Assembly: GCA_029882995.1 (NCBI GenBank)
Contig: JAOUJV010000010.1
Coordinates: forward strand, 1 to 38,934
Reading direction: 5' to 3'
DNA from: Gammaproteobacteria bacterium
GTDB lineage: Bacteria > Pseudomonadota > Gammaproteobacteria > DAOVJZ01
Length of the DNA stretch: 38,934 bases
Shown: in pieces, positions 22,552 through 36,726 of the stretch
Position numbering within the stretch: the stretch's first letter is position 1
Layout: every line of letters begins with the position of its first letter
The notes under the pieces: model-generated
Database searches by the model: none
What the model was told of the DNA's origin: nothing
What the model saw: only the letters and a program-made list of their open reading frames with translations
Made by a program: the position numbers and the translations under genes

Positions 22552-22628
22552 ATTGCTAAATAGGCAAAATAATTACGGTTTAATTACACTAAATTTATTA
22601 TGGATTAATAAATCGCTATCTAGGCAAA
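22552..22628 (+). repeat. Imperfect 17-nt direct repeats before the PhnD-like gene
   Basis: The 17-mers at 22552-22568 and 22612-22628 match at 14 positions and share TAGGCAAA exactly, spaced by 60 nt. The second copy runs into the ribosome-binding site (AAAGGA) of the PhnD-like gene. They lie in the 313-base gene-free stretch 22327-22639, which otherwise holds only a terminator and AT-rich promoter-like sequence. Confidence 0.5.
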
Positions 22629-22639
22629 GGACATATCAT

Positions 22640-23539
22640 ATGCAGAGTTTATCAAGATATTTTCTGGTAGTGATATTGTTGCTACTGGGTGCTTGTGATG
22701 GGACTACTCATTCAGAGATAACAGTCGATCCTGTCAAACAAACCGCAGCCCAAGGTGGTGATGAAAAAATAATATTGAGATTCGGTTTTGATGTGCGGTC
22801 AGGGGCGATAGAAGATGCACGCCAGTATGCTCCGTTTCTAAAATATCTTGAAAAGACGACCGGCTATCAATTCAAGCTCCATTTGAATCCGGATAATACA
22901 GAACTGTCAGATGATCTGGGTAATGGTATTGTCGATCTTGCTGCGGTAGGTGCAGTCAGCTTTATAAAGGCGGAAAGAAAATATGCTGTGATCTGTCTGG
23001 TAAGAGGAATTAATTTACAGGGAAGATCAGAGTACCGCTCATTTATGATTGCTCATCCTGCAAGTGATATCAGGGGTATAAAGGATGTACGTGGAAAAAG
23101 AATGGTATTCGGGAATACATCATCCACACAGGGGTATTTACTGCCGCGCATAGAACTGATGAATAACGGAATCAGACTGAAAGACCTGAAGAGCTATATA
23201 CATACAGGATCACATCATCAATGTGCTGAGGAAGTAATTTCCGGCAGACATGATGTATGTGGTATGCAGGATACGCTGGCGGATGTTCTTGAAAAAAAGG
23301 GTAAGGTTCGCATTATCCACCGATCCGATTACGTGCCATCCAGCGGTATTGCAATAAACAAAAATGTACCAGAGCACATAAGAGAAAAAATAAAACAGGC
23401 GTTACTGGATTTCCAGCCAACAGGTCGTGATGCCAGTGATCTCTATAACTGGCATAAAACGGAAATGCCAAACGGTTTTACTCATTCAAACAAACATGAT
23501 TTCAATCAGCTAAAAGAATTGCTCGAATTGATTCAGTAG
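22640..23539 (+). CDS. PhnD-like substrate-binding lipoprotein
   Basis: The 299-residue product is a PhnD-type (phosphate/phosphonate ABC) periplasmic binding protein. The start is the ATG at 22640, behind AAAGGA; the longer ORF start at 22553 lacks a ribosome-binding site and precedes the signal. The signal MQSLSRYFLVVILLLLGAC ends in a lipobox (LGAC), so Cys19 is probably lipidated. Binding-fold marks include ARQYAPFLKYLEKTTGYQFK, DLAAVGAVSFIKAERK, and GKRMVFGNTSSTQGYLLPRI, the latter resembling the phosphonate-binding loop. No ABC permease or ATPase is nearby. Instead a membrane GGDEF-EAL gene follows after 16 nt, suggesting a sensory rather than transport role. Confidence 0.85.
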   Translation: MQSLSRYFLVVILLLLGACDGTTHSEITVDPVKQTAAQGGDEKIILRFGFDVRSGAIEDARQYAPFLKYLEKTTGYQFKLHLNPDNTELSDDLGNGIVDLAAVGAVSFIKAERKYAVICLVRGINLQGRSEYRSFMIAHPASDIRGIKDVRGKRMVFGNTSSTQGYLLPRIELMNNGIRLKDLKSYIHTGSHHQCAEEVISGRHDVCGMQDTLADVLEKKGKVRIIHRSDYVPSSGIAINKNVPEHIREKIKQALLDFQPTGRDASDLYNWHKTEMPNGFTHSNKHDFNQLKELLELIQ

Positions 23540-23555
23540 CTCAGGATGCAATGTA

Positions 23556-26500
23556 ATGACGTTGAACAATAAAATAATGGCACTTGTTGTATCTCTGGTA
23601 TTGTTTCTGGGAGGGACAACAATAGGTATTTATAACTATTTTGCAGATAATTCGATCCGGTCATTACACAATAACTGGACTGGGTTGATATCACAAACAA
23701 TTGCAGAGAGTACAGCCACTCACATTGTGAATAGAAATATTTTACACCTCAATCGAATTTTGAAACCAATTGTTTCTGGACATGATGAAATTGAATATGC
23801 ATTTGTGGTGGATTTTGAAGGTAATATTATTTCATATACATTTGCCAAATCAAGACTGCCATTTTTTATTGATCTGGTGAAAGATGAAAATAAGTCAGTA
23901 TCTAGAAAAATCAGGTTCAACAACAAGGAGGTTGTGGATTATTCATACCAGCTGGTAGAGGGTCTCCCTGCCCGGATCCATGTTGGTGTAAATAACTCCA
24001 TCATTATAAAAGCAGAAACAGATCTTATTCATAATATTTTGACGGTTTATTTTATTGTCGCTGTCATATTTATACTGATTTCATATGTTGTAGGTAATCA
24101 TATTACAAAACCTGTAACCAGTATTATTGAACAAATGAATACAATTTCAATGAACAAAGGTGGTGGAAAACTGGAGGTTAGGACAAAGGATAAATATCTA
24201 GTAAATCTGATATCTGCTTTTAACAAAATGATAGAGCGACGCATTAGAAGTGAGCAGGAGTTGCGCGTCAATGAGGAAAATACGCGGCTATTACTAAATC
24301 ATATTGGTGAGGCAGTATATGGTATTGATTTGAATGGAAACTGCACTTTTGCCAATCCGGCTTGTGCCAGAATGCTTGGATACAATAATTCATTAAAATT
24401 GATTGGAAAAAACATGCACAGGTTAATACACCATCACCGGGAGGATGGAACCGAGTTGCCAGAAGAAGAATGCAACATTTATAAGGCACATCGGGAAGGC
24501 ACAAGTACACATATAGAAAATGAAGTATTCTGGAAAAATGATGGCAGTTATTTTTATGTAGAATACTGGTCTGATCCACTTTACCGGGAAGGTGATGTAA
24601 TCGGTTCAGTTATTTCATTTATAGATATTACAGATCGAATAAGAGCGCATAAGGCACTGGAAAAAAGTCGGCAGGGTCTGGCAGAGGCTCAGAAAATTTC
24701 CGATATGGGGAATTGGGAATGGAATATATGTACTGGCGAGCTGTCCTGGTCTGATCATATATTTCGTATTTTTGGTTTTGAACCGGGGGAATTCCAGCCT
24801 ACCTATGAACGGTTTATTCAATGTGTACATCCTGAAGACAGGGAACTGGTGGCAAGCAAGGTAGAAAATGCACTTGAGGATCATAAGGATTATGAGGTTG
24901 AGCATCGTATTATTCTTCCGGATAACTCTGTACGTATTGTATATGAAATAGGAAAGACTTATTTGGAAGATGGTGAGCCGGTCAGGATGATTGGGACAGT
25001 TCAGGATATTACGATAAGACAAGAGATGACTTCAAAAATGTCAATGCTATCAAGCGCACTGGAACAATCGGCTGATATTGTACTGATTACTGATAACAGG
25101 GGAATTATTGAATATGTTAATCCGGCATTTGAATCTATTACCGGGTTTAGCAGGGAAGATGCCATAGGACATACAGCAGCACTACTTAACTCCGGCAAGA
25201 TGGATAAGGAGTTTTATAAAAGATTATGGGGGACAATTTCTTCAGGCAAGGTATTCACTGATATTTTTGCTAACAAAACAAAAGACGGAACTATTTTCTA
25301 TGAAGAAAAAACCATTACACCGCTTAAGGACGCCAGAGGTAATATTATTAACTATATTTCTACCGGCAAGGATATTTCGGAGCGTATAGAAACACAGGAA
25401 CGTCTCCGTCATATGGCACACCATGATGCCTTGACGGGTTTACCAAACCGTACCTTGCTTATGGACAGACTGGAACAGGCAACTTCAAGAGCCCGTTGGC
25501 ATAACAGGATAGTTGGCGTCATGTTTCTTGATCTGGATCGATTCAAGACAATTAACGATACACTGGGTCATGATGTTGGTGATACCCTGTTAAAGGAAAT
25601 TTCATCACGTTTATTACAGTGTGTCCGTGATGGTGATACAGTCGCCAGACTGGGTGGCGATGAATTTGCCATTATTCTTAATGATATGGCTTCGGAAGAG
25701 GATGTATCACCTTTTGCACAGAAAATTATTCAGGAATTAAATACTCCATTTCTAATTCATGAACATGAATTATTTATAACAACCAGTATTGGTATCTGTG
25801 TTTATCCGGAAGACGGGGAAGATGCAAAAATTTTGCTTAAAAAAGCAGATACTGCCATGTATCGTGCCAAGAATATGGGACGTAATAATTACCAGTATTT
25901 TACGAGTGAAGATAATATCAAGGCAATTGAGCGATTAAAACTGGAAAATGATTTGAGACGTGCGCTCGAGCGTGATGAGTTCAGACTGCATTTTCAGCCG
26001 CAACTGGATTTACATGAAGGCAAACTTGCCGGTATGGAGGCATTGTTACGCTGGCAACATCCCGAACATGGTTTGGTTTCACCAGGAGTTTTTATCCCCA
26101 TTCTGGAAGACACTGGCATGATTCTTCCTGTTGGAGAGTGGGTATTGCGCACCGCATGTCGGCATGCGCGTTCATGGCTTGATGCCGGGTTACACTTCAA
26201 ACGTATTGCAGTGAATTTGTCTGCACGTCAGTTTAACCAACAGGATTTGGTTAAAACTATCAGGGAAATTCTGGATGAAGAAAAGGTGGGAGCGCATTTT
26301 CTTGAACTGGAATTAACCGAAGGTTTGCTGGTAGAGAATTTTGCCGAGACATCAAAGGTACTGCATGAATTGCATAAAATGGGGGTTTATATTTCTATTG
26401 ATGATTTTGGTACCGGTTATTCCTCCATGAATTACCTGAAACGTTTACCAGTAGATTCACTCAAAATTGATTATTCATTTGTACGTGATATTACACTTGA

Positions 26501-26762
26501 TCCGGATGATGCAAATATTGCTTCTGCTATTGTGAGTCTTGCGCACAGTCTTGGTTTAACTGTTATCGCTGAAGGGGTGGAAACACTCGAACAGCTGAAT
26601 TTTCTACTACACGAAGGTTGTGATGAAATTCAGGGTTTCCTGTTTAGTCCCCCGTTGCCTCCTGATGCCGTTCAGCATTTGGTGCTTGAGGGTTCCATGT
26701 ATTGGGAGTGGAATGATATCTTGCGTGAGCAGCGATGGAACAAGACCAAAAAACGGGTCTGA
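23556..26762 (+). CDS. Membrane PAS-GGDEF-EAL cyclic-di-GMP enzyme
   Basis: This 1068-residue inner-membrane protein likely makes and/or degrades cyclic di-GMP. Layout: TM helix near residues 7-27, periplasmic sensor to about 155, TM helix about 159-180, HAMP region (GNHITKPVTSIIEQMNTISM), and three PAS domains at about 245-360, 375-490 and 495-610. GGDEF follows with an intact GGDEF at 700-704 and an inhibitory site RDGD five residues before it; EAL has the motif at 828-830. EAL catalytic signatures ELTEGLLVENF, DDFGTGYSSMNYL, KIDYSFVRDI and AEGVETLEQL are all present, so both activities look possible. The partner lipoprotein gene lies 16 nt upstream, probably co-transcribed. Confidence 0.93.
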   Translation: MTLNNKIMALVVSLVLFLGGTTIGIYNYFADNSIRSLHNNWTGLISQTIAESTATHIVNRNILHLNRILKPIVSGHDEIEYAFVVDFEGNIISYTFAKSRLPFFIDLVKDENKSVSRKIRFNNKEVVDYSYQLVEGLPARIHVGVNNSIIIKAETDLIHNILTVYFIVAVIFILISYVVGNHITKPVTSIIEQMNTISMNKGGGKLEVRTKDKYLVNLISAFNKMIERRIRSEQELRVNEENTRLLLNHIGEAVYGIDLNGNCTFANPACARMLGYNNSLKLIGKNMHRLIHHHREDGTELPEEECNIYKAHREGTSTHIENEVFWKNDGSYFYVEYWSDPLYREGDVIGSVISFIDITDRIRAHKALEKSRQGLAEAQKISDMGNWEWNICTGELSWSDHIFRIFGFEPGEFQPTYERFIQCVHPEDRELVASKVENALEDHKDYEVEHRIILPDNSVRIVYEIGKTYLEDGEPVRMIGTVQDITIRQEMTSKMSMLSSALEQSADIVLITDNRGIIEYVNPAFESITGFSREDAIGHTAALLNSGKMDKEFYKRLWGTISSGKVFTDIFANKTKDGTIFYEEKTITPLKDARGNIINYISTGKDISERIETQERLRHMAHHDALTGLPNRTLLMDRLEQATSRARWHNRIVGVMFLDLDRFKTINDTLGHDVGDTLLKEISSRLLQCVRDGDTVARLGGDEFAIILNDMASEEDVSPFAQKIIQELNTPFLIHEHELFITTSIGICVYPEDGEDAKILLKKADTAMYRAKNMGRNNYQYFTSEDNIKAIERLKLENDLRRALERDEFRLHFQPQLDLHEGKLAGMEALLRWQHPEHGLVSPGVFIPILEDTGMILPVGEWVLRTACRHARSWLDAGLHFKRIAVNLSARQFNQQDLVKTIREILDEEKVGAHFLELELTEGLLVENFAETSKVLHELHKMGVYISIDDFGTGYSSMNYLKRLPVDSLKIDYSFVRDITLDPDDANIASAIVSLAHSLGLTVIAEGVETLEQLNFLLHEGCDEIQGFLFSPPLPPDAVQHLVLEGSMYWEWNDILREQRWNKTKKRV

Positions 26763-26777
26763 TGATTTGTAGATATT

Positions 26778-27866
26778 TTATCTAAACCCAGTCACTCTCA
26801 AAGTAGCACCGGTTGTGGTGCTGTCATTTTCCAGTTTGTTGATATACATAAATTTTCCGTCAGAGCTGAAAACAGCGCCACTTGGTTCTGTAGTGACCGG
26901 GGCCCAGCGTGCAAACAAAATAATCTCATCTGCCGTGTTGTCATTATTTTTATCTGGTCGAGCAATCCAGATCCCGTTGGTGCGTAAATTCATATACTGC
27001 CAATATTTGGGGATGTCCTGCAAAATATAAAGATCACCATTTGGGTGAAAGACAAGATTATCGGGATTCCGGATTCCTGATTCTGCTTTGATAAAATCAC
27101 TTATAACAGGTTTTTCCCCGGAGTCATCAATTCGAATGACCCGGTCCTCCCCGGTAACAGCAATATAAATTTTGCCATCAGGACCTGCTTCCATGTCTTC
27201 CGGCCGGTTAAAAGAAACAGCCCCTTTTTCGATGGATTCCTGTCGTGCATTTTCCGGGTGATCTATTGTTATCCAGCCTGTTGATGAAAGCGCATATAAA
27301 GTCCCTGATGCAAGTGAGTCCGTGGTTAACGAGTGATCAGGAATAAACTTATAAATAGCTCCTTGCGAATGTTCATCAGCCAAATAGACAATGCCATCAG
27401 GTGTGATGGCTATGCCTTCATGGGCAAAAGTCCCCAAACGGGCTCTTGTTACATATTTTCCATTATCGGGATCAACTTCATAAATGAGTCCATCACCTTT
27501 CTCCTGTCCCAGTAACAATGTATTCCATGGTGTCCATTTCAAACCATCTGCTGCACATATACCCTTGATCAGAATCGTTCTTGTATTGGTTACCAAATCA
27601 ATACGTGACAGTGACGGGCTATGACCGCAGATTTTCTGATCAAAGATTTCATGCGATGTGTAAAGAAAGCGACCATCAGGTGAAAGGACATTCATATCAG
27701 GTCGGGCAGGTATAGAATCACTGGCAATTGTCTGATATTGAAAACCGGATGGAAGTTGCAGATTCTTTTCCAGCATTGAGCCGGATTTAATTAAAGCAGT
27801 GGCAGGTTCAGCATTAGCCGGATGGAAAATGAAAACGAAGGACAAAAAATAAAATCTTAATCCCAT
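26778..27866 (-). CDS. Exported PhoX-like (DUF839) beta-propeller protein
   Basis: The 362-residue product has a short signal peptide (ending HPANA) and repeated beta-propeller blades such as SPDGRFLYTSHE, ITPDGIVYLADE and AGPDGKIYIAVTGEDRVIRI. The motifs FNRPEDMEAGPDGKIYI, IRNPDNLVFHPNGDLYI and EPSGAVFSSDGKFMYIN match PhoX-family (DUF839) proteins, which include calcium-dependent alkaline phosphatases. It is smaller than the usual PhoX, so activity is uncertain; a lactonase-like propeller is an alternative. The ATG overlaps the last 10 nt of the upstream fructokinase gene, indicating coupled translation. Confidence 0.75.
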   Translation of the reverse strand: MGLRFYFLSFVFIFHPANAEPATALIKSGSMLEKNLQLPSGFQYQTIASDSIPARPDMNVLSPDGRFLYTSHEIFDQKICGHSPSLSRIDLVTNTRTILIKGICAADGLKWTPWNTLLLGQEKGDGLIYEVDPDNGKYVTRARLGTFAHEGIAITPDGIVYLADEHSQGAIYKFIPDHSLTTDSLASGTLYALSSTGWITIDHPENARQESIEKGAVSFNRPEDMEAGPDGKIYIAVTGEDRVIRIDDSGEKPVISDFIKAESGIRNPDNLVFHPNGDLYILQDIPKYWQYMNLRTNGIWIARPDKNNDNTADEIILFARWAPVTTEPSGAVFSSDGKFMYINKLENDSTTTGATLRVTGFR

Positions 27867-28816: not shown

Positions 28817-28853
28817 GTGAATAGTGAATATTTTATTGAATATTCACTATTCG
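28817..28853. promoter_or_regulatory. Perfect 14-bp palindromic operator in the mak-tetR divergent region
   Basis: GAATAGTGAATATT (28819-28832) and its exact reverse complement (28839-28852) are separated by 6 nt. The left arm is built from two tandem GTGAATA units. The dyad lies 18 nt before the TetR-family ATG, the usual place for an autoregulatory TetR operator. It might also influence mak on the other strand. Confidence 0.75.
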
Positions 28854-28870
28854 AGGATTAGTATATTGCG

Positions 28871-29467
28871 ATGTCTACTAACCCAGATATTCTTGATAAC
28901 CCACGTGCACGCATACTCGAAGCGGCTGAGGTGCGTTTTCGTCAATACGGTTACAACAAAACCACCATGAATGAGATCGCAAATGATTGCCAGATGTCAG
29001 CCGCAAATCTTTATCGTTACTTTGAAAGCAAGCTGGATATCGGTGCTGCGATGGCACAGGGCTGTTTTATTGATAAAGAACAGTTGCTGGAAGAGGTGGT
29101 TAATAGAACAGATCTTTCTGCAACTAAACGTCTGGAAGAGTTTGTACTAACGCTTTTGCGTTATACCCATGGCCAATGCTATGACCAGCCCAGAATCAAT
29201 GAGCTGGTAGACAGCATTATTCAGGAACGGCCGGCATTGGTGCAAAGAAAGATCGCCGGTGAACGTGCCTTGCTGGAGCAAATTCTGACAGCAGGTAAGT
29301 CAACAGGTGAATTTGATATAAAGAATATTGGTACAACAACAGAGGCAGTGCATACATCGCTTGTGAAGTTTAGCGTGCCTTTATTTATGGGTATGTATCC
29401 ATTAGATGAATTTGAACGTATTGCAAAGAATGTCGTCGCACTTTTGGTAAACGGATTGAAAAAATAG
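28871..29467 (+). CDS. TetR-family transcriptional regulator
   Basis: The 198-residue product has the TetR DNA-binding domain at about residues 12-60: RARILEAAEVRFRQYGYNKT, then TMNEIANDCQMSAANLYRYF, ending with the F-x-S-K motif (FESK). The remaining helices form a ligand-binding and dimer domain without recognisable specificity. A GAGGA ribosome-binding site precedes the ATG, and a perfect palindrome lies just upstream. The next gene, an RND exporter, begins 28 nt downstream in the same direction, so the regulator probably controls the whole cassette to 33855 and itself. Confidence 0.92.
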   Translation: MSTNPDILDNPRARILEAAEVRFRQYGYNKTTMNEIANDCQMSAANLYRYFESKLDIGAAMAQGCFIDKEQLLEEVVNRTDLSATKRLEEFVLTLLRYTHGQCYDQPRINELVDSIIQERPALVQRKIAGERALLEQILTAGKSTGEFDIKNIGTTTEAVHTSLVKFSVPLFMGMYPLDEFERIAKNVVALLVNGLKK

Positions 29468-29495
29468 TTTCATAAAAACAAACAAGGGAGTCAGC

Positions 29496-31799
29496 ATGCC
29501 AGAGAACAAGTTGTTAAAGGATTATACCAAATGGGTATTGGCCCATCCTGTGATTACCATCATTCTGTGTCTTGCTATGGCATTTCTGGCTGCCAGTGGC
29601 GGGCGTTTCCTTTCATTCACAACCAATTACCGTGTGTTTTTTAGTCCAGATAATCCGGAATTGCTGGCATTTGAAAAACTCGAAAATACCTATACAAAAA
29701 ATGACAACGTCATGTTTGTACTTACTCCGGATGATGGTGATGTATTTACACCAAAAACACTGGAGGCAGTTAAATTATTGACAGAGAAATCCTGGCAAAT
29801 TCCATATTCATCAAGAGTTGACTCTATAAGTAATTTCCAGCATACCGAGGCAGAAGCTGATGATCTTCTGGTACGCGATCTTGTTGAAGAACCGACATCC
29901 CTTGATAGAAATGAGCTGGATCGAATAAAGAAAATTGCATTGAGTGAACCACTGTTGGTTAAGCGGCTTATTTCTCCCACGGCACATGTTACCGGCATTA
30001 ATGCAACAATTCAGTTGCCGGGAATAGACCCAACAAGGGAAACACCGGAAGTTGTCGAGTTTGCACGCAAAATAGCACAGGAAATCAGGGATCAGTTCCC
30101 TCATCTTGATGTCAGAATAACCGGTATGGTGTTAATGAATAATGCCTTTACTGAAGCCTCGCAAAATGACATGCAAACACTCATCCCAATTAGCTTTGGC
30201 CTGATGTTGTTAACGCTAAGTTTTTTAATAAGAGGCGCTTCCGGTACTTTTGCCACATTAATCGTCATCATTGCTTCTGTAATTACTGCCTTAGGGTTGG
30301 GAGGGTATATTGGTTATCCGATTACACCTCCCTCTGCTGCTACACCAACGATTGTTTTAACCATTGCTATTGCGAGTTCTGTACATATTCTGGTGACATT
30401 TGTGCATAGCATGTCGGATGGGATGTCAAAACACGATGCAATGGTTGAAAGTTTGCGCATTAATATGCAACCGGTATTTTTAACAACATTAACAACGGCT
30501 ATTGGCTTTTTGAGTATGAACTTTTCTGATGTTCCTCCATTTAATCATCTGGGAAATATGGTAGCTATCGGTGTTGCGGCTTCATTTATATTTAGTGTTG
30601 CCATGTTACCAGCAATGATGATGTTGTTACCGGTAAAACCAAAAAAATGGAAAACGGGTTCTGATAGCACGATGTATAAACTGGGTGACTTTGTTGTAAG
30701 ACAAAGAAAACTACTTATGTGGTCCATGTTGGCTATTGCTGCGACACTGATTTTATTTATTCCACGTAATGAATTAAACGATGTGTTTGTTCATTACTTT
30801 GATGAAACTATTGATTTTCGTGTAGATTCAGATTATGCCAATGACAACCTTAATGGCAGCTATGTCATTGACTATTCACTTGAGTCAGAAAAATCAGGCG
30901 GCATTAACGAAGTGGAGTTTTTACAGGAAGTAGAAGCCTTTGCAAACTGGTATCGACAACAGCCGGACGTAAAACATGTCAATACTATTACCGATATCAT
31001 GAAACGTCTGAACAAAAACATGCATGGTGATGATCCGGAATGGTACCGGTTACCGGATAATCGTGAATTGTCTGCACAGTACTTGCTTCTATATGAAATG
31101 TCCTTACCCTATGGACTTGATTTGAACAACCAAATCAATATCGATAAATCAGCTACTCGTTTTATTGTGACATTGGGTATTATTTCCTCTAATGCCATCA
31201 TTGATATGGAGAATCGTGCTGCTGAATGGTTGAAGAATAATACCAGGCATATCAAATCAGCTGAGGGCAGTGGTCCAACAGTCATGTTTGCGCATATTGG
31301 TAAACGCAATATTATAAGTATGCTAGAGGGAACAACCGTTGCGTTGATCTTTATTTCGTTAATACTGATTTTTGCATTGCGATCATTCAAGATTGGTATG
31401 GCAAGTCTTGTGCCTAATCTTATTCCGGCAGGCATGGGTTTTGGCTTGTGGGGAATGGCAGTGGGTGAAATTGGTCTTGCGCTTTCAGTAGTTGCAGGTA
31501 TGACATTAGGTGTGGTTGTTGATGATACGGTTCATTTCCTGAGCAAATATCTACGCGCAAGACGTGAAGGTAACTATAATTCTCATGATGCTGTTCGTTA
31601 TGCATTTTCCAGTGTGGGCTGGGCATTGTTTGTAACGTCAGTTGTTCTGGTGGCAGGCTTCCTGGTACTGGCCATGTCCAGCTTTAAATTGAATTCCGGA
31701 ATGGGAACACTTACTGCGATTGTTATTGCTTTTGCATTGGTGGCGGATTTTCTGTTATTGCCGCCACTGCTAATGAAAATTGAGGGGGAAAAGGCATGA
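29496..31799 (+). CDS. RND/MMPL-superfamily exporter
   Basis: The 767-residue product has the RND layout: one TM helix near residues 13-33, a large periplasmic domain, a bundle of five helices (about 230-385), a second TM/periplasmic unit, and a final five-helix bundle (about 615-760). AGMTLGVVVDDTVHFLSKYL contains Asp676 and Asp677 at the place of proton-relay acids in COG1033-type exporters. The equivalent segment of the first half (IAIASSVHILVTFVHSM) lacks acids, so the halves are asymmetric. The size is well below AcrB-type pumps (about 1040) and no periplasmic adaptor gene is present, which suggests a lipid or hydrophobic-molecule exporter like MmpL or HpnN. The ribosome-binding site is AAGGGAG; the gene overlaps the next by 4 nt. 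Confidence 0.92.
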   Translation: MPENKLLKDYTKWVLAHPVITIILCLAMAFLAASGGRFLSFTTNYRVFFSPDNPELLAFEKLENTYTKNDNVMFVLTPDDGDVFTPKTLEAVKLLTEKSWQIPYSSRVDSISNFQHTEAEADDLLVRDLVEEPTSLDRNELDRIKKIALSEPLLVKRLISPTAHVTGINATIQLPGIDPTRETPEVVEFARKIAQEIRDQFPHLDVRITGMVLMNNAFTEASQNDMQTLIPISFGLMLLTLSFLIRGASGTFATLIVIIASVITALGLGGYIGYPITPPSAATPTIVLTIAIASSVHILVTFVHSMSDGMSKHDAMVESLRINMQPVFLTTLTTAIGFLSMNFSDVPPFNHLGNMVAIGVAASFIFSVAMLPAMMMLLPVKPKKWKTGSDSTMYKLGDFVVRQRKLLMWSMLAIAATLILFIPRNELNDVFVHYFDETIDFRVDSDYANDNLNGSYVIDYSLESEKSGGINEVEFLQEVEAFANWYRQQPDVKHVNTITDIMKRLNKNMHGDDPEWYRLPDNRELSAQYLLLYEMSLPYGLDLNNQINIDKSATRFIVTLGIISSNAIIDMENRAAEWLKNNTRHIKSAEGSGPTVMFAHIGKRNIISMLEGTTVALIFISLILIFALRSFKIGMASLVPNLIPAGMGFGLWGMAVGEIGLALSVVAGMTLGVVVDDTVHFLSKYLRARREGNYNSHDAVRYAFSSVGWALFVTSVVLVAGFLVLAMSSFKLNSGMGTLTAIVIAFALVADFLLLPPLLMKIEGEKA

Positions 31800-32575
31800 T
31801 GAAACGAATATTTTTTCTTTGTGTATTGTTGTTGCCATTTGGATTACATGCAGAAACACCGGAAGAGAAGGGCTTGGCGATTGCCAAGGAAGTCAATCAT
31901 CGTGACAGTGCCTGGCATGATCAGCAGTCAACTATGCGCATGGTCCTTAAAAACCGGCATGGTGATGAAAGCTCGCGTGAAATCAGGAATCGGTTGCTGG
32001 AAGTAGAAGGAGATGGTGATAAGACCCTGATCATTTTTGATGAACCACGTGATGTGAAAGGAACCGCATTCCTTAGCTACACCCATGCTAAAGTACCGGA
32101 TGAACAATGGTTATATTTGCCCGCGCTTAAAAGGGTAAAACGGATTTCATCCAACAATAAATCCGGTCCGTTTATGGGTAGTGAATTTTCCTATGAAGAT
32201 ATTAATTCTCAGGAAGTGGATAAATATACTTATAAATATTTACGTGATGAAAAGGTGGAAGGTCGGGACAGTTTTGTAAACGAAAATTATCCATCCTATG
32301 AATATTCCGGTTATACACGTATGGTTGTATGGATAGACAAGGAATATTATCAACCAGTAAAAATTCAGTACTATGATCGTAAAAACGAGTTGTTGAAGAC
32401 GCTTTCTTATGCAGGTTACAAGCAATATGCCGGACGTTACTGGCGTCCTGATATCATGGAAATGGTCAACCACCAGAACGGTAAATCGACGCGGCTGGAG
32501 TGGAGTAATTATCGTTTTAAAACCGGTCTTACAGAGCGGGATTTTGATCGTAATACCTTGAAACGCATACGATAA
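31796..32575 (+). CDS. LolA-like outer-membrane lipoprotein-sorting family protein
   Basis: The 259-residue product has a cleavable signal peptide (MMKRIFFLCVLLLPFGLHA) and belongs to the LolA-like group (COG2834 / TP0789-like). Diagnostic parts are WLYLPALKRVKRISSNNKSG and PFMGSEFSYEDI, then YPSYEYSGYTRMVVWIDKEY. The LolA half-barrel fold carries lipids or lipoproteins across the periplasm, so a shuttle between the RND exporter and the outer membrane is inferred. The start overlaps the exporter gene (ATGA), indicating tight coupling; a second ATG at 31799 is an equal choice. Confidence 0.88.
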   Translation: MMKRIFFLCVLLLPFGLHAETPEEKGLAIAKEVNHRDSAWHDQQSTMRMVLKNRHGDESSREIRNRLLEVEGDGDKTLIIFDEPRDVKGTAFLSYTHAKVPDEQWLYLPALKRVKRISSNNKSGPFMGSEFSYEDINSQEVDKYTYKYLRDEKVEGRDSFVNENYPSYEYSGYTRMVVWIDKEYYQPVKIQYYDRKNELLKTLSYAGYKQYAGRYWRPDIMEMVNHQNGKSTRLEWSNYRFKTGLTERDFDRNTLKRIR

Positions 32576-32634
32576 AAGCTACCTTTATATAAGGTATCCC
32601 CTTTTACTCAAACACAGGGAAGTCAAAACCCGAT

Positions 32635-33855
32635 ATGTCTATGCTCTGTCTGAGAACATTCAGGCCAAATATGCTGACGCTGGCTGTTGCCACTATGTCA
32701 TTACTGTTTGTCAATCCGGTAGTGGCGGGGGAGTGGTCAGGCTATATCGCGGCTGAATATCGCAGTTTTCCACATGATACCGCTGACAGTCGTCAGTATG
32801 ATGACAACTTCTCTTTTGTTATTGAACCTGAATACCACCACAAGATTGACGGCAGTTACGAGAGCATTACCTTCATCCCGTTTATTCGTGTTGATCAGCA
32901 TGATAATGAACGTACCCATTTTGATATCCGTGAACTCATGTGGCAAAAGGCCGCGCAAGACTGGGAACTGCGCACCGGTATTGGCAAGGTGTTCTGGGGA
33001 GTGACCGAGTCACAGCATCTGGTCGATATTATTAACCAGACTGATCTGGTTAACGCGCCAGATGGTGAAGACAAGTTGGGTCAGCCCATGATTAATTTCG
33101 CCCTTGTGCGTGATTGGGGAACTATTGATTTCTTTTTATTACCCGGTTTTCGTGAACGTACTTTTTCAGAGAATGAAGGGCGTTTGCGAACAAATCCACG
33201 TGTCGATACGGAACAGGCAGTCTATGAGTCTGCACATGGCAAGCGGCATATTGATGTCGCTGTGCGTTGGGCGCATAACATAGGAATAATGGATATTGGG
33301 TTATCCCATTTTTATGGAACCAGCCGTGAGCCGAGGCTGGTCTTGGGTACAGACAGTGCAGGTGATACCGTATTTGTGCCGCACTATGATCTCATTAATC
33401 AAACCGGACTAGATATGCAAATTACATCCGGTGGCTGGTTATGGAAACTGGAAACCATACACCGCTCCGGTCAAGGTGAAACCTTTAATGCAGCAACCGC
33501 CGGTTTTGAGTATACGTTTTATGGCTTAGGTAACTCGAACAAGGATCTCGGTGTGTTATTTGAATATTCCTATGATGATCGTCGACAAAATTCACCCTCT
33601 CTGTTTCAGGATGATGTCATGCTAGGTGCACGTTTGACATTTAACGATGTCAATGACACCGAGGCGTTGCTCGGTGTCATCTATGATCGTTACTACAAAT
33701 CGAAAGGGTTGAATCTGGAAGCCAGCCGGAGGTTTGGTGATTCAATCAAGGTGAGTGTCGAAGCACGCACCTATCATGAAACACCTGCCAGCGATCCACT
33801 AAACCAGTTCCGCAATGATGATTATTTCCAGGCGGAATTGGCGTGGTATTACTAA
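32635..33855 (+). CDS. Predicted outer-membrane beta-barrel protein
   Basis: The 406-residue product has a signal region (core MLTLAVATMSLLFVNPVVAG) and then alternating beta-strand-like sequence such as EWSGYIAAEYRSFP, WKLETIHRSGQGE and LGVLFEYSYDD. It ends with aromatic residues (FQAELAWYY), as expected for an outer-membrane barrel. A segment WELRTGIGKVFWGVTESQHL and INQTDLVNAPDGEDKLGQPM recalls DUF1302-like barrels that accompany RND/LolA-like pairs. I cannot name a substrate. It follows the LolA-like gene by 59 nt in the same direction, with AGGGAAG upstream. Its stop overlaps the convergent lipoprotein gene by 3 nt, so no terminator separates them. The start could also be the ATG at 32671. 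Confidence 0.75.
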   Translation: MSMLCLRTFRPNMLTLAVATMSLLFVNPVVAGEWSGYIAAEYRSFPHDTADSRQYDDNFSFVIEPEYHHKIDGSYESITFIPFIRVDQHDNERTHFDIRELMWQKAAQDWELRTGIGKVFWGVTESQHLVDIINQTDLVNAPDGEDKLGQPMINFALVRDWGTIDFFLLPGFRERTFSENEGRLRTNPRVDTEQAVYESAHGKRHIDVAVRWAHNIGIMDIGLSHFYGTSREPRLVLGTDSAGDTVFVPHYDLINQTGLDMQITSGGWLWKLETIHRSGQGETFNAATAGFEYTFYGLGNSNKDLGVLFEYSYDDRRQNSPSLFQDDVMLGARLTFNDVNDTEALLGVIYDRYYKSKGLNLEASRRFGDSIKVSVEARTYHETPASDPLNQFRNDDYFQAELAWYY

Positions 33856-34745
33856 GGTGTAATACTGGCTGTTATTGCAACACTATTGCCATTGGCATCA
33901 AACCCCTGTGCATCAACAAGTGTTAAGCCTGTCACTTCTCCGGCCACATAGAACTTGAAATCTTGCATATCGCTTAATGGTTTATCATGTGTTGGTATTA
34001 ATATAACTTTCAGATTGGTACCATCGTCTGACCAGTTAATGTTCTTTATGTCACCGCGTGGATTGACTACATAGGCACGTCCCACACCCCCGTTATCAAC
34101 ATCGGCTGTATGAGTCATGTTAATTTCAATTGCATGCGGGATAGTGCTACCAGTGAACGAGATTGTGGAATGATTTGCGCGCTCCATTGTCCTGATTTGT
34201 GCTTCTGTGAGAGCACCTATTTGTGTATTAAGAAAAGCATTTTGTTCCCCAGTTCCAGGAAGGATGTTGATCATAGGAGAACCAATGGTTTCCCAACTGG
34301 ATGTCTCTGCATTATAAATGTTGACTTGGACAACAGCCATTCCAACAGAAAGAGAAGTGGGCAAATCAAAGATTAAAGTATCTTGCATCCATTCTTTATC
34401 ATAGATGGTTGCACCCTGTATAAGTGTTCCTGATGCTATTTCACCACCATCAATATCCTGATTTGTTTCATAACCAATGATCACTTTTGATAAAGGATCA
34501 ATAACAGCATGGAAATATGCCCTGATTGAGGGATCATTGGCAGGTATCGTGATGCCTGTGCCTTCAGAATCCTGTATATAGAGACTGATATCGGTACGTG
34601 ATATGTCCGGATGTCTGCCGGGCATAATGGCAATGGTGTCTCCCGCACGAGCAGCCATACCAAAGCTGTGAGTTCCCGTACATCCTGTCATATTTATCAA
34701 TAAAGCCAATAAAAATATCAGGCTGATTTTTTCATAAATTTTCAT
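33852..34745 (-). CDS. Unrecognised lipoprotein downstream of the subtilase
   Basis: The 297-residue product is not recognised. It has a lipoprotein signal (KISLIFLLALLINMTGC), so Cys22 is likely lipidated. The mature part is rich in beta-type segments such as MQDTLIFDLPTSLSVGMAVV and VNIYNAETSSWETIGSPMIN, followed by DFKFYVAGEVTGLTLVDAQG. This looks like immunoglobulin-like or jelly-roll sheets, though that is only inferred. GAGGA precedes the ATG and the gene starts 28 nt after the subtilase stop, so the two are very probably one operon. It could anchor or be matched to the protease's dockerin-like tail, an untested idea. Confidence 0.7.
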   Translation of the reverse strand: MKIYEKISLIFLLALLINMTGCTGTHSFGMAARAGDTIAIMPGRHPDISRTDISLYIQDSEGTGITIPANDPSIRAYFHAVIDPLSKVIIGYETNQDIDGGEIASGTLIQGATIYDKEWMQDTLIFDLPTSLSVGMAVVQVNIYNAETSSWETIGSPMINILPGTGEQNAFLNTQIGALTEAQIRTMERANHSTISFTGSTIPHAIEINMTHTADVDNGGVGRAYVVNPRGDIKNINWSDDGTNLKVILIPTHDKPLSDMQDFKFYVAGEVTGLTLVDAQGFDANGNSVAITASITP

Positions 34746-34773: not shown

Positions 34774-36726
34774 TTACTGTAATATCAACTTCCGTATTAA
34801 AATCAGGTCAGACATATTTATTACACCATCTGGTGCCCCAATTGGATATACATCCCCGTGGGTTAGTTCTGTCACAGTGGGTGTTAATTCACCCAGTACA
34901 ATTCGAGTCGCAATTGCATAATCGGCTGCATTAATTACACCATCCGGTGATCCAAGTGGCGCCAGATCGCCGTCTTCGTAATTAAAGTTCAATGGATATA
35001 AGTCAGCATTGTCCAGGTAGGCATCTCCATCGGTATTGTCGGATAAAGGATTCAAATCCTGCCCCGATATATAACTGGTGGCATCACCATCGTAGGCCAC
35101 TTCTGTATAATCACTAAGCCCATCATTATCGGTGTCGATTAGCAGAGTATTCGTGCCAATACTGTTTTCAAATATGTCTGTTAACCCATCGTTATCATCA
35201 TCAATATCACAGGCATCACCTTGAGTATCATTATCAGTATCCAGTTGATCTATATTAGGTATGGTCGAACAGTTATCACAACTGTCTCCAATACCATCAT
35301 TGTCGGTATCCAGTTGATCGGGGTTGGTTGTTACCAGACAATTATCACAAGCATCACCTACGCCATCATTGTCATCATCTTCCTGCCCCGGGTTGGCATT
35401 CAAGGGACAGTTATCAATAGCATCACAAATTCCATCATTGTCACTATCATTACATGGAAGTTTTAGTAAGGGTTCCTGAATACCATCTGGATCATCTGCA
35501 CATTGACCACCAACACCATTAGCGCAGGGTTCAGGGTCAGCATCTGCTAGTAACATAGTCTTGATCTGTGCTGGTGTTGCGGTGGGGTTTTCAATTACAT
35601 ATAGAGCAGCTGCCCCGGCCACGTGTGGACTGGACATACTGGTTCCATACATGTTGCATGTGCCGCCACCAATACAGGTTGACAGGATTTTAAAACCAGG
35701 TGCCATGATATCAACGCCTGAGCCATAGTTACTAAAGCAAAGAAAACTGTCGTCTACATATTCTGGGCAGGTGGAGAATGTTGCTCCACCACTACCAGCA
35801 CCACCTGCCTGTCCATCAAAATCGGCAAGCCCTGAAACCGTAATGACATCCGAGTGGCCAGCAGGAGATACATTAGTTACATCAGTCATTTCATTGCCTG
35901 CCGCAACAGTATAAATGACACCTGATGAGACGGAACTGGATAATGCTGAGTCTAATGAAGAACTGGTTCCTGTAAAACCAAGACTGATATTGGCCACTTC
36001 TATTTGATTTGCATTGGCAGTTATATAATCAATAGCAGCAATTACTTGAGATGTGTAACTAGTTCCCAGATCATCAAAAACCTTGAATCCCCACAGGCGT
36101 GCGCCAGGAGCAACACCTACCACACCAGAACTATTATCAATAGCACCTGCTATACCGGCAACATGGGTTCCATGACCATCAACGTCGTTTGCACCGGCAT
36201 CACCTTCAGTACATTCAGATGTTATATTTACACCCCTTATTGTGGCAGGGCAATTAATGTACTTAAATACATTTAGATCCGGGTGATCGATATCGATACC
36301 TGTATCAATGATTGCAATATCTACGTCCATTGGATCATTGATGTTATCTATGTTTGCTGTGGGATTAAGATCAGCTTCGATCCTGTTTATGCCCGTTGGT
36401 AAAGTCTGTGCATATTTTTTTACTTTATGGTCAGGCTCAATGTAAAGGATACGAGGATCACGTTTTAATACTTCTAGTTTGCCTGATGGTATCGAAGTTG
36501 CCATGCCCTTGATTGCATGCTGATATTTAAAATGAAGACCCAGACCATGGGCTTTAGTTAGTTCATCAGAGATATTATGAGGTTTTGTTACAGAATCTTT
36601 ATAAACAACAATGTAACGATCAGAATCACTGTTTCCTTTTGCGAGGACAAGTTCCGGAAGGCCAAGGTATAGAAAGGCCAGCACGATAAATTGAAGCAAT
36701 ATTTTTTTATTATAAAATTGGCTCAC
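34774..36726 (-). CDS. Secreted subtilisin-like protease with thrombospondin-3 and dockerin repeats
   Basis: The 650-residue product is an S8 serine protease for export. A signal peptide covers about residues 1-29, and an I9-type propeptide about 36-105 (DRYIVVYKDSV to YIEPDH). The catalytic set is complete: Asp141 in IIDTGIDIDHPDL, His185 in DGHGTHVAG, Asn278 in AAGNEM, Ser363 in GTSMSSPHVAG. From about 425 to 545 there are Asp-rich thrombospondin-type-3 calcium repeats (for example DNDGICDAIDNCP). Two dockerin-type repeats close the protein at 586-611 and 624-649 (GSPDGVINAADYAI and GAPDGVINMSDLIL). The start codon is GTG with a weak GGA upstream. A lipoprotein gene follows in the same operon. 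Confidence 0.93.
   Translation of the reverse strand: MSQFYNKKILLQFIVLAFLYLGLPELVLAKGNSDSDRYIVVYKDSVTKPHNISDELTKAHGLGLHFKYQHAIKGMATSIPSGKLEVLKRDPRILYIEPDHKVKKYAQTLPTGINRIEADLNPTANIDNINDPMDVDIAIIDTGIDIDHPDLNVFKYINCPATIRGVNITSECTEGDAGANDVDGHGTHVAGIAGAIDNSSGVVGVAPGARLWGFKVFDDLGTSYTSQVIAAIDYITANANQIEVANISLGFTGTSSSLDSALSSSVSSGVIYTVAAGNEMTDVTNVSPAGHSDVITVSGLADFDGQAGGAGSGGATFSTCPEYVDDSFLCFSNYGSGVDIMAPGFKILSTCIGGGTCNMYGTSMSSPHVAGAAALYVIENPTATPAQIKTMLLADADPEPCANGVGGQCADDPDGIQEPLLKLPCNDSDNDGICDAIDNCPLNANPGQEDDDNDGVGDACDNCLVTTNPDQLDTDNDGIGDSCDNCSTIPNIDQLDTDNDTQGDACDIDDDNDGLTDIFENSIGTNTLLIDTDNDGLSDYTEVAYDGDATSYISGQDLNPLSDNTDGDAYLDNADLYPLNFNYEDGDLAPLGSPDGVINAADYAIATRIVLGELTPTVTELTHGDVYPIGAPDGVINMSDLILIRKLILQ

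What the first reader, a model, noticed from the sequence alone, without database searches (positions are those of the whole stretch)
28817..33855. TetR-RND-LolA-like-barrel cassette: a candidate self-contained envelope lipid export line
Seen: a TetR regulator, a 767-residue RND exporter, a LolA-like periplasmic protein overlapping it by 4 nt, and a predicted outer-membrane barrel follow each other on one strand. Family knowledge: RND exporters of MmpL/HpnN type move lipids, and the LolA fold carries lipidic cargo. Inference: together they could form an inner membrane-periplasm-outer membrane route without an adaptor or TolC. Such RND plus LolA-like pairs occur elsewhere, but the substrate and the barrel's role here are unknown.
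Basis: partly seen in the sequence, partly recalled or inferred. Interest (0 to 1): 0.62.

Follow-up and report, generated by a model that had tools for sequence, protein, structure and literature searches.

The report
Self-regulated RND-LolA-barrel export cassette
Four neighbouring bacterial genes form a conserved, self-regulated set that probably carries a greasy or soap-like molecule from the inner membrane, on a periplasmic carrier protein, to an outer-membrane channel; it is a compact variant of a little-studied transport design, not a wholly new one.

Summary
A TetR gene (28871-29467), a 767-aa MMPL-type RND exporter (29496-31799), a LolA_like (PF17131) periplasmic protein overlapping it by 4 nt (31796-32575) and an outer-membrane beta-barrel (32635-33855) follow each other on the + strand. 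The cassette also has a dedicated operator: a perfect 14-nt inverted repeat 18 nt before tetR, whose core TGAATA-N10-TATTCA recurs before 28 of 36 homologous tetR genes. RND, LolA_like and barrel lie together in 54 of 70 usable homologous loci. Starting from the barrel instead, 24 of 25 other strong hits have LolA_like adjacent. Distant relatives permute the order or fuse RND to LolA_like. The barrel has no Pfam match but folds confidently (pLDDT 93.5, about 18 strands) and is a full-length distant homologue of DUF1302. The RND resembles MmpL, HpnN and NPC1. The design belongs with known RND/LolA-fold/DUF1302 systems (AmeABCD; P. putida PP_0765/0766/2018/2019) but lacks their YCF48-type part. 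Most likely it is an inducible, proton-driven export line for amphipathic molecules. Substrate and direction are not shown; no biosynthetic gene recurs beside it, which weakens the idea of one dedicated lipid. New variant of a known kind.

The parts
28819..28852 (.). TetR operator-like element: perfect 14-nt inverted repeat (GAATAGTGAATATT-N6-AATATTCACTATTC), core TGAATA-N10-TATTCA at 28825-28846
   Evidence: 100% complementary arms; core conserved at spacing exactly 10 before 28 of 36 homologous tetR genes (window included) with at most one mismatch, 0.0 expected in mononucleotide shuffles; 3 such palindromes in the whole genome, the other two without the conserved inner sequence
28871..29467 (+). 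TetR-family regulator, 198 aa, probably autoregulatory repressor of the cassette
   Evidence: PF00440 1.7e-13, PF17935 6.6e-11; homologous TetR upstream of RND in 41 of 58 usable loci
29496..31799 (+). Inner-membrane RND exporter of MMPL/HAE3 type, 767 aa; proton-relay candidates D676, D677, H680 (TM10) and H297 (TM4)
   Evidence: PF03176 1e-29; TIGR00921 159 bits, below its cut-off of 351.9; model pLDDT 89.4; Foldseek to MmpL4/5, MmpL3, NPC1L1, HpnN, TM 0.70-0.79; residue counts
31796..32575 (+). LolA_like periplasmic carrier, 259 aa, signal peptide, no lipobox; overlaps the RND gene by 4 nt
   Evidence: PF17131 1.3e-65 and DUF1329 42.1 bits over a cut-off of 23.1; PDB 3bk5 4.2e-94; only strong PF17131 gene in the genome
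32635..33855 (+). Outer-membrane beta-barrel, 406 aa, about 18 strands; long loop 118-149 is the most conserved segment
   Evidence: model pLDDT 93.5; Foldseek to OccK/OpdQ, AlgE; hhalign to DUF1302-type barrels prob 98.2, E 4e-14 over 385 columns; conservation by segment

Best explanation
A self-contained, inducible trans-envelope export line for hydrophobic or amphipathic molecules. Proposed steps: (1) TetR binds the palindrome in front of its own gene and represses the cassette until a hydrophobic ligand releases it (inferred from the conserved operator). (2) The MmpL/HpnN-like RND pump, driven by protons through D676/D677 and H680 in TM10, lifts the substrate from the inner membrane into its periplasmic domain (inferred from family and fold). 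(3) The LolA_like protein takes the substrate in its half-barrel and shields it across the periplasm; it takes the place of the adaptor (inferred; a natural RND-LolA fusion supports tight coupling). [quoted passage not shown] Shown here: the genes, their conserved linkage, the operator-like element, the folds, the fusion and the permutations. Not shown: substrate, direction and physical contact.
For: Conserved linkage from both directions: starting from LolA_like, all three genes in 54 of 70 usable loci; starting from the barrel in other genomes of the phylum, LolA_like adjacent in 24 of 25 strong hits, the exception (L130) being at a contig end. A natural RND-LolA_like fusion of 1048 aa (L120) has the barrel gene overlapping its end by 4 nt; the former signal peptide is kept as a hydrophobic segment (785-803) that would put LolA_like back on the periplasmic side. 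Gene order is permuted but content kept in distant relatives: LolA-RND-barrel (L155-L157) and LolA-barrel-RND (L158). RND structure class; LolA-fold crystal homologue; barrel nearest in fold to the channels OccK/OpdQ and AlgE. Conserved charged strand positions and loop. Dedicated conserved operator-like element. Flanking genes do not recur, so the cassette behaves as a unit. Mutants of related systems: deletion of ameABCD raised Nile Red accumulation and monoterpene sensitivity (PMC6394551); PP_0765/0766/2018/2019 are all needed on Tween 20, and AlphaFold co-folding placed the LolA-fold protein between RND and barrel with weak contacts (PMC10866462).
Against: No experiment on this family. Eight of 70 loci have LolA_like and barrel with no RND beside them, and TetR directly precedes LolA_like in L049, L050 and L098, so the RND is not always part of the local set. 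Six of 70 have RND and LolA_like without barrel. The charged barrel fits poorly with very apolar cargo. Tween-20 and alkane data from relatives are about growth on hydrophobic substrates and could equally mean uptake. Homologous loci were chosen by similarity to the window's LolA_like protein, and most are metagenome bins.
Confidence: 0.57

Rival explanations
1. Uptake line: the barrel admits a hydrophobic or amphipathic nutrient (fatty acid, alkane, ester), LolA_like carries it inward and the RND helps deliver it to or through the inner membrane, as NPC1 does for cholesterol.
For: Relatives are needed for growth on Tween 20 (PMC10866462) or induced on C28 alkane (TOL_3187/3188, PMC6304351); RND model resembles NPC1L1/NPC1; barrel resembles the uptake channels OccK/OpdQ and BenF-like porins.
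Against: Bacterial RND pumps of this class that have been tested move cargo outward (HpnN, MmpL; family knowledge); loss of AmeABCD increased dye accumulation (PMC6394551); no catabolic gene recurs beside the cassette.
Confidence: 0.18
2. Outer-membrane maintenance: the cassette moves an ordinary membrane lipid (phospholipid, hopanoid, sterol, isoprenoid) to the outer membrane, the barrel acting as a docking receptor and lipid inserter rather than an open channel.
For: RND of MmpL/HpnN class; LolA fold; L037 carries a squalene/phytoene synthase just upstream of its LolA_like gene; no dedicated biosynthetic gene is linked in general, as expected if the cargo is a common lipid; ApeL/M/N is an RND + LolA-like + LolB-like set for a polyene lipid (PMC8253772).
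Against: A TetR with a private operator suggests response to a chemical signal, not housekeeping; the squalene/phytoene synthase neighbour is seen once; only 194 of 369 genomes of the class have a PF17131 gene over cut-off.
Confidence: 0.17
3. The RND and LolA_like proteins serve the biogenesis of the barrel itself: LolA_like is a chaperone that brings the porin to the outer membrane (the reading proposed for TOL_3187/3188).
For: Proposed in PMC6304351; LolA_like and barrel are the most constant pair, also without RND.
Against: Barrels normally need only Sec, periplasmic chaperones and BAM (family knowledge); the RND belongs to the lipid/sterol branch and not to SecDF; LolA_like without barrel occurs in several loci (L016, L039, L077, L088).
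Confidence: 0.05

Closest known systems
AmeABCD monoterpene efflux system of Castellaniella defragrans (PMC6394551)
   Same: HAE3 RND, LolA-superfamily periplasmic protein (DUF1329) and DUF1302 outer-membrane protein in one cassette; the window's LolA_like protein also matches DUF1329 above cut-off, and its barrel is a distant full-length homologue of DUF1302-type barrels.
   Different: No YCF48-type protein (AmeC) in the cassette, and no PF14870 match in the genome; LolA_like is 259 aa (PF17131) not 451; barrel 406 aa not 605; own TetR and operator; no catabolic island.
P. putida PP_0765 (DUF1302) / PP_0766 (DUF1329) / PP_2018 / PP_2019 (RND) (PMC10866462)
   Same: Same three kinds of envelope part, with an explicit proposal that the LolA-fold protein links RND and barrel.
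   Different: Genes in two loci and four components; needed for growth on Tween 20; larger DUF1302 and DUF1329 proteins (family knowledge).
Thalassolituus oleivorans TOL_3187 (MMPL + LolA-like fusion) and TOL_3188 (porin) (PMC6304351)
   Same: RND and LolA-like parts followed at once by a barrel without a known domain; resembles the fusion locus L120 found here.
   Different: RND and LolA-like are one protein; induced on C28 alkane; no TetR operator reported in the passages read. Sequence identity with the window was not measured.
ApeL/ApeM/ApeN of the E. coli aryl polyene cluster (PMC8253772)
   Same: RND plus LolA-like carrier for a lipidic product.
   Different: Outer-membrane partner is LolB-like, not a barrel; embedded in a biosynthetic cluster.
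HpnN hopanoid transporter and MmpL family
   Same: Fold of the RND and proton-driven lipid movement (family knowledge).
   Different: HpnN works without co-transcribed periplasmic or outer-membrane proteins (PMC6394551); the window's RND scores 109.7 bits against an HpnN cut-off of 751.85.

Membership tests
RND superfamily, MMPL/HAE3 type | PF03176 MMPL above the gathering score; MmpL/HpnN-like fold | tested here: met
   104 bits over a cut-off of 20.5; Foldseek TM 0.70-0.79 to MmpL and HpnN
RND superfamily, MMPL/HAE3 type | NCBIfam HAE3 subfamily TIGR00921 above cut-off | tested here: not met
   159.3 bits, cut-off 351.9
LolA_like (PF17131) | Pfam gathering score; LolA-fold crystal homologue | tested here: met
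   220.9 bits over a cut-off of 30; 3bk5 4.2e-94 over residues 23-257
Canonical lipoprotein carrier LolA | Match to a LolA equivalog | tested here: not met
   Only LolA1_Flavo at 15.3 bits against a cut-off of 100
DUF1302 barrels (PF06980) | Pfam match above gathering score | tested here: not met
   No match for the window protein; 1 of 65 family members at 7e-4
DUF1302 barrels (PF06980) | Full-length profile homology to DUF1302-positive barrels | tested here: met
   hhalign prob 98.2, E 4.3e-14, 385 columns, to L155-L157 barrels, of which the L155 one hits DUF1302 at 1e-15
AmeABCD system | HAE3-type RND + LolA-fold (DUF1329) + DUF1302-like barrel in one cassette | tested here: met
   HAE3 assignment by best NCBIfam hit, below its cut-off
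AmeABCD system | YCF48-type second periplasmic protein (AmeC) | tested here: not met
   none in the cassette; PF14870 absent from the genome while controls ring
AmeABCD system | Efflux activity on apolar compounds | not testable with these tools
   needs a mutant
Classical tripartite HAE1 pump (AcrAB-TolC type) | Membrane-fusion adaptor and TolC-type factor in the operon | tested here: not met
   No such ORF in 28871-33855; RND matches ACR_tran below cut-off (19.9 against 28)
HpnN hopanoid transporter | HpnN equivalog score | tested here: not met
   109.7 against 751.85 bits

The most novel reading that the evidence does not exclude
A widespread, undescribed class of adaptor-free trans-envelope exporter in which a soluble LolA-fold shuttle, not a fusion protein or bridge, passes amphipathic cargo from an MmpL-type pump to a charged-lumen barrel. 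It would have its own TetR circuit and recur across Gammaproteobacteria and bins labelled Nitrospinota, Nitrospirota, Desulfobacterota and others, with the LolA_like-barrel pair as the core that can be served by different pumps.
Probability: 0.3. Interest if true: 0.72.

Novelty: new variant of a known kind. Interest (0 to 1): 0.5.

Why it matters
How hydrophobic molecules cross the Gram-negative periplasm and outer membrane after leaving an MmpL/HpnN-type pump is an open question. This compact three-gene set, with a conserved private operator, natural fusions and permuted gene orders, gives a minimal system in which it can be tested. It also joins scattered reports (monoterpenes, Tween 20, long alkanes, benzene consortia, aryl polyenes) into one design, and gives a fold and a distant family to a barrel that has no database name.

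Tried and rejected
Looked for a recurring biosynthetic or catabolic neighbour by scanning 107 upstream and 115 downstream flanking proteins against Pfam: none recurs beyond further TetR regulators. The window's own neighbours (ROK kinase, PhoX/SMP-30-like propeller, subtilase, 297-aa protein, polyprenyl synthase) are not found in the homologous loci, so they were rejected as parts. Considered the adjacent periplasmic propeller as a stand-in for AmeC: rejected, not conserved. Loci without an adjacent RND were checked for an ABC transporter as the replacement pump: not found among the upstream genes tested in L045, L052 and L070. Sequence search of the barrel in the PDB: nothing. PF06980 in the own genome: nothing, but no control genome rang either, so this says little. 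A paper search for a FadR-like operator sequence gave nothing.

Full report
What is there. The four genes are present as described: TetR 28871-29467, RND 29496-31799, LolA_like 31796-32575, barrel 32635-33855. The RND stop and the LolA_like start share ATGA. The gene after the barrel is convergent and overlaps its end (33852-34745, minus strand), and the gene before tetR is divergent, so the unit is bounded on both sides. Pfam gives TetR_N plus TetR_C_27, MMPL and LolA_like; the barrel has no match in Pfam or NCBIfam.

A regulator with its own operator. The stretch before tetR holds a perfect 14-nt inverted repeat, GAATAGTGAATATT-N6-AATATTCACTATTC, at 28819-28852, 18 nt before the start codon. 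Among 36 tetR genes of homologous loci (the window included), the core TGAATA-N10-TATTCA occurs upstream of 19 exactly and of 28 with at most one mismatch, always with a 10-nt spacer, against 0.0 in mononucleotide shuffles; other spacings are near zero except N5, which appears to come from the outer repeats of the same element. The whole genome holds three such palindromes, and only this one has the conserved inner sequence. Autorepression is inferred from this; the inducer is unknown.

Conserved linkage. From 80 loci fetched with the LolA_like protein, counting only those with enough contig on the relevant side, RND is upstream in 62 of 73, the barrel downstream in 68 of 76, all three in 54 of 70, and the homologous TetR in 41 of 58 loci that have the RND. 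The reverse test, starting from the barrel profile in 249 genomes of the phylum, gave 26 full-strength matches. One is the window; of the other 25 (L126-L150), 24 have LolA_like adjacent and one, L130, ends at the barrel. Pairwise distances of the three proteins correlate (Mantel r 0.64-0.69, permutation maxima 0.21-0.26), as expected of genes inherited together, though shared ancestry of the hosts contributes. In the class, 194 of 369 genomes have a PF17131 gene over cut-off. Flanking genes do not recur, so the cassette is a unit of its own and gives no substrate clue.

Variants that inform on function. L120 encodes RND and LolA_like as one 1048-aa protein with a barrel gene overlapping its stop by 4 nt. 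Between the two domains lies a hydrophobic segment (785-803) ending in AHAD, which looks like the remnant of LolA_like's signal peptide. RND C-termini are cytoplasmic (family knowledge), so this segment would return the domain to the periplasm. In L155-L157 the order is LolA-RND-barrel, in L158 LolA-barrel-RND. Rearranged order with kept content is strong evidence for a joint function. L045, L046, L052, L070 and L075 have LolA_like plus barrel without an adjacent RND (L046 starts close to its contig end); L050 and L098 have TetR-LolA-barrel. LolA_like and barrel thus look like the core, with the pump sometimes elsewhere.

The RND. The model (pLDDT 89.4) matches MmpL4/5, MmpL3, NPC1L1/NPC1 and HpnN with TM 0.70-0.79. 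In TM10, D676 and H680 are present in 60 of 60 and D677 in 57 of 60 sequences; in TM4, position 294 is N or D in 57 of 60 (S in the window) and H297 is invariant. This suggests a proton relay with its acids mainly in TM10; the assignment is an inference.

The LolA_like protein. It aligns with crystal structures 3bk5 (4e-94), 9tp6 and 4z48, is about 60% identical across the near homologues, starts with a signal peptide and has no lipobox. It also matches DUF1329 above cut-off, the family of AmeB. The cavity was not measured.

The barrel. The model has about 18 strands at pLDDT 93.5. Nearest solved folds are the OccK/OpdQ channels and the alginate exporter AlgE at TM about 0.5-0.56. Outer loops of such proteins usually vary most; here the 32-residue loop 118-149 is the most conserved segment (0.84 against 0.65 for strands), and 23 charged strand positions are conserved in 90% or more of the sequences. 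A folded-in loop and a charged lumen are the natural reading; strand orientation was inferred from strand parity. Profile comparison with the DUF1302-type barrels of L155-L157 aligns 385 columns at E 4e-14, and the shared motif around WG-x-[TA]-[DE]...D-I-[IV]-N extends to the longer barrels of L158 and L160.

Known relatives and novelty. AmeABCD (PMC6394551), the P. putida PP_0765/0766/2018/2019 set (PMC10866462), the benzene 'Nanopod' cluster (PMC13101534), regulon members in aromatic metabolism (PMC6449761) and the TOL_3187/3188 fusion (PMC6304351) share the parts list. The window's cassette differs by having no YCF48-type protein (none in the genome), small LolA_like and barrel proteins, and a private TetR circuit. 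In the papers searched, no study of this PF17131 three-gene form was found; most subscription papers are not held. It is a new variant of a known kind.

Limits. Loci were mostly metagenome bins, so phylum labels may be wrong; homologues were picked by similarity to one protein; complexes were not modelled; no experimental evidence on cargo, direction or contact exists for this family.

Noticed in passing
window 34774-36726 (-): Secreted subtilase (Peptidase_S8) with inhibitor I9 propeptide, thrombospondin type 3 repeats and a weak C-terminal dockerin-like match.
   Followed up: no
window 22553-26762 (+): A phosphonate-type periplasmic binding protein directly precedes a 1068-aa PAS/GGDEF/EAL-looking membrane protein (domains of the second read from sequence only), possibly a sensing pair.
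   Followed up: no
window 26778-27866 (-): PhoX/SMP-30-like propeller with a signal peptide next to a ROK kinase; not conserved beside the cassette.
   Followed up: partly
L037 6359-9016; L058 5620-7647: Squalene/phytoene synthase just upstream of the LolA_like gene in L037, and an ORF matching GPP34 and cytochrome P450 upstream in L058: possible substrate hints.
   Followed up: no
L031 2548-7964; L062 634-5293: Two RND genes before one LolA_like gene, suggesting two pumps may share one carrier.
   Followed up: no
L049 7264-8729; L098 572-3285: TetR directly followed by LolA_like without RND; L049 also lacks the barrel.
   Followed up: partly
G000:C29:1810-1831 and G000:C46:5676-5697: Two other TGAATA-N10-TATTCA palindromes in the genome, without the conserved inner sequence.
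   Followed up: no
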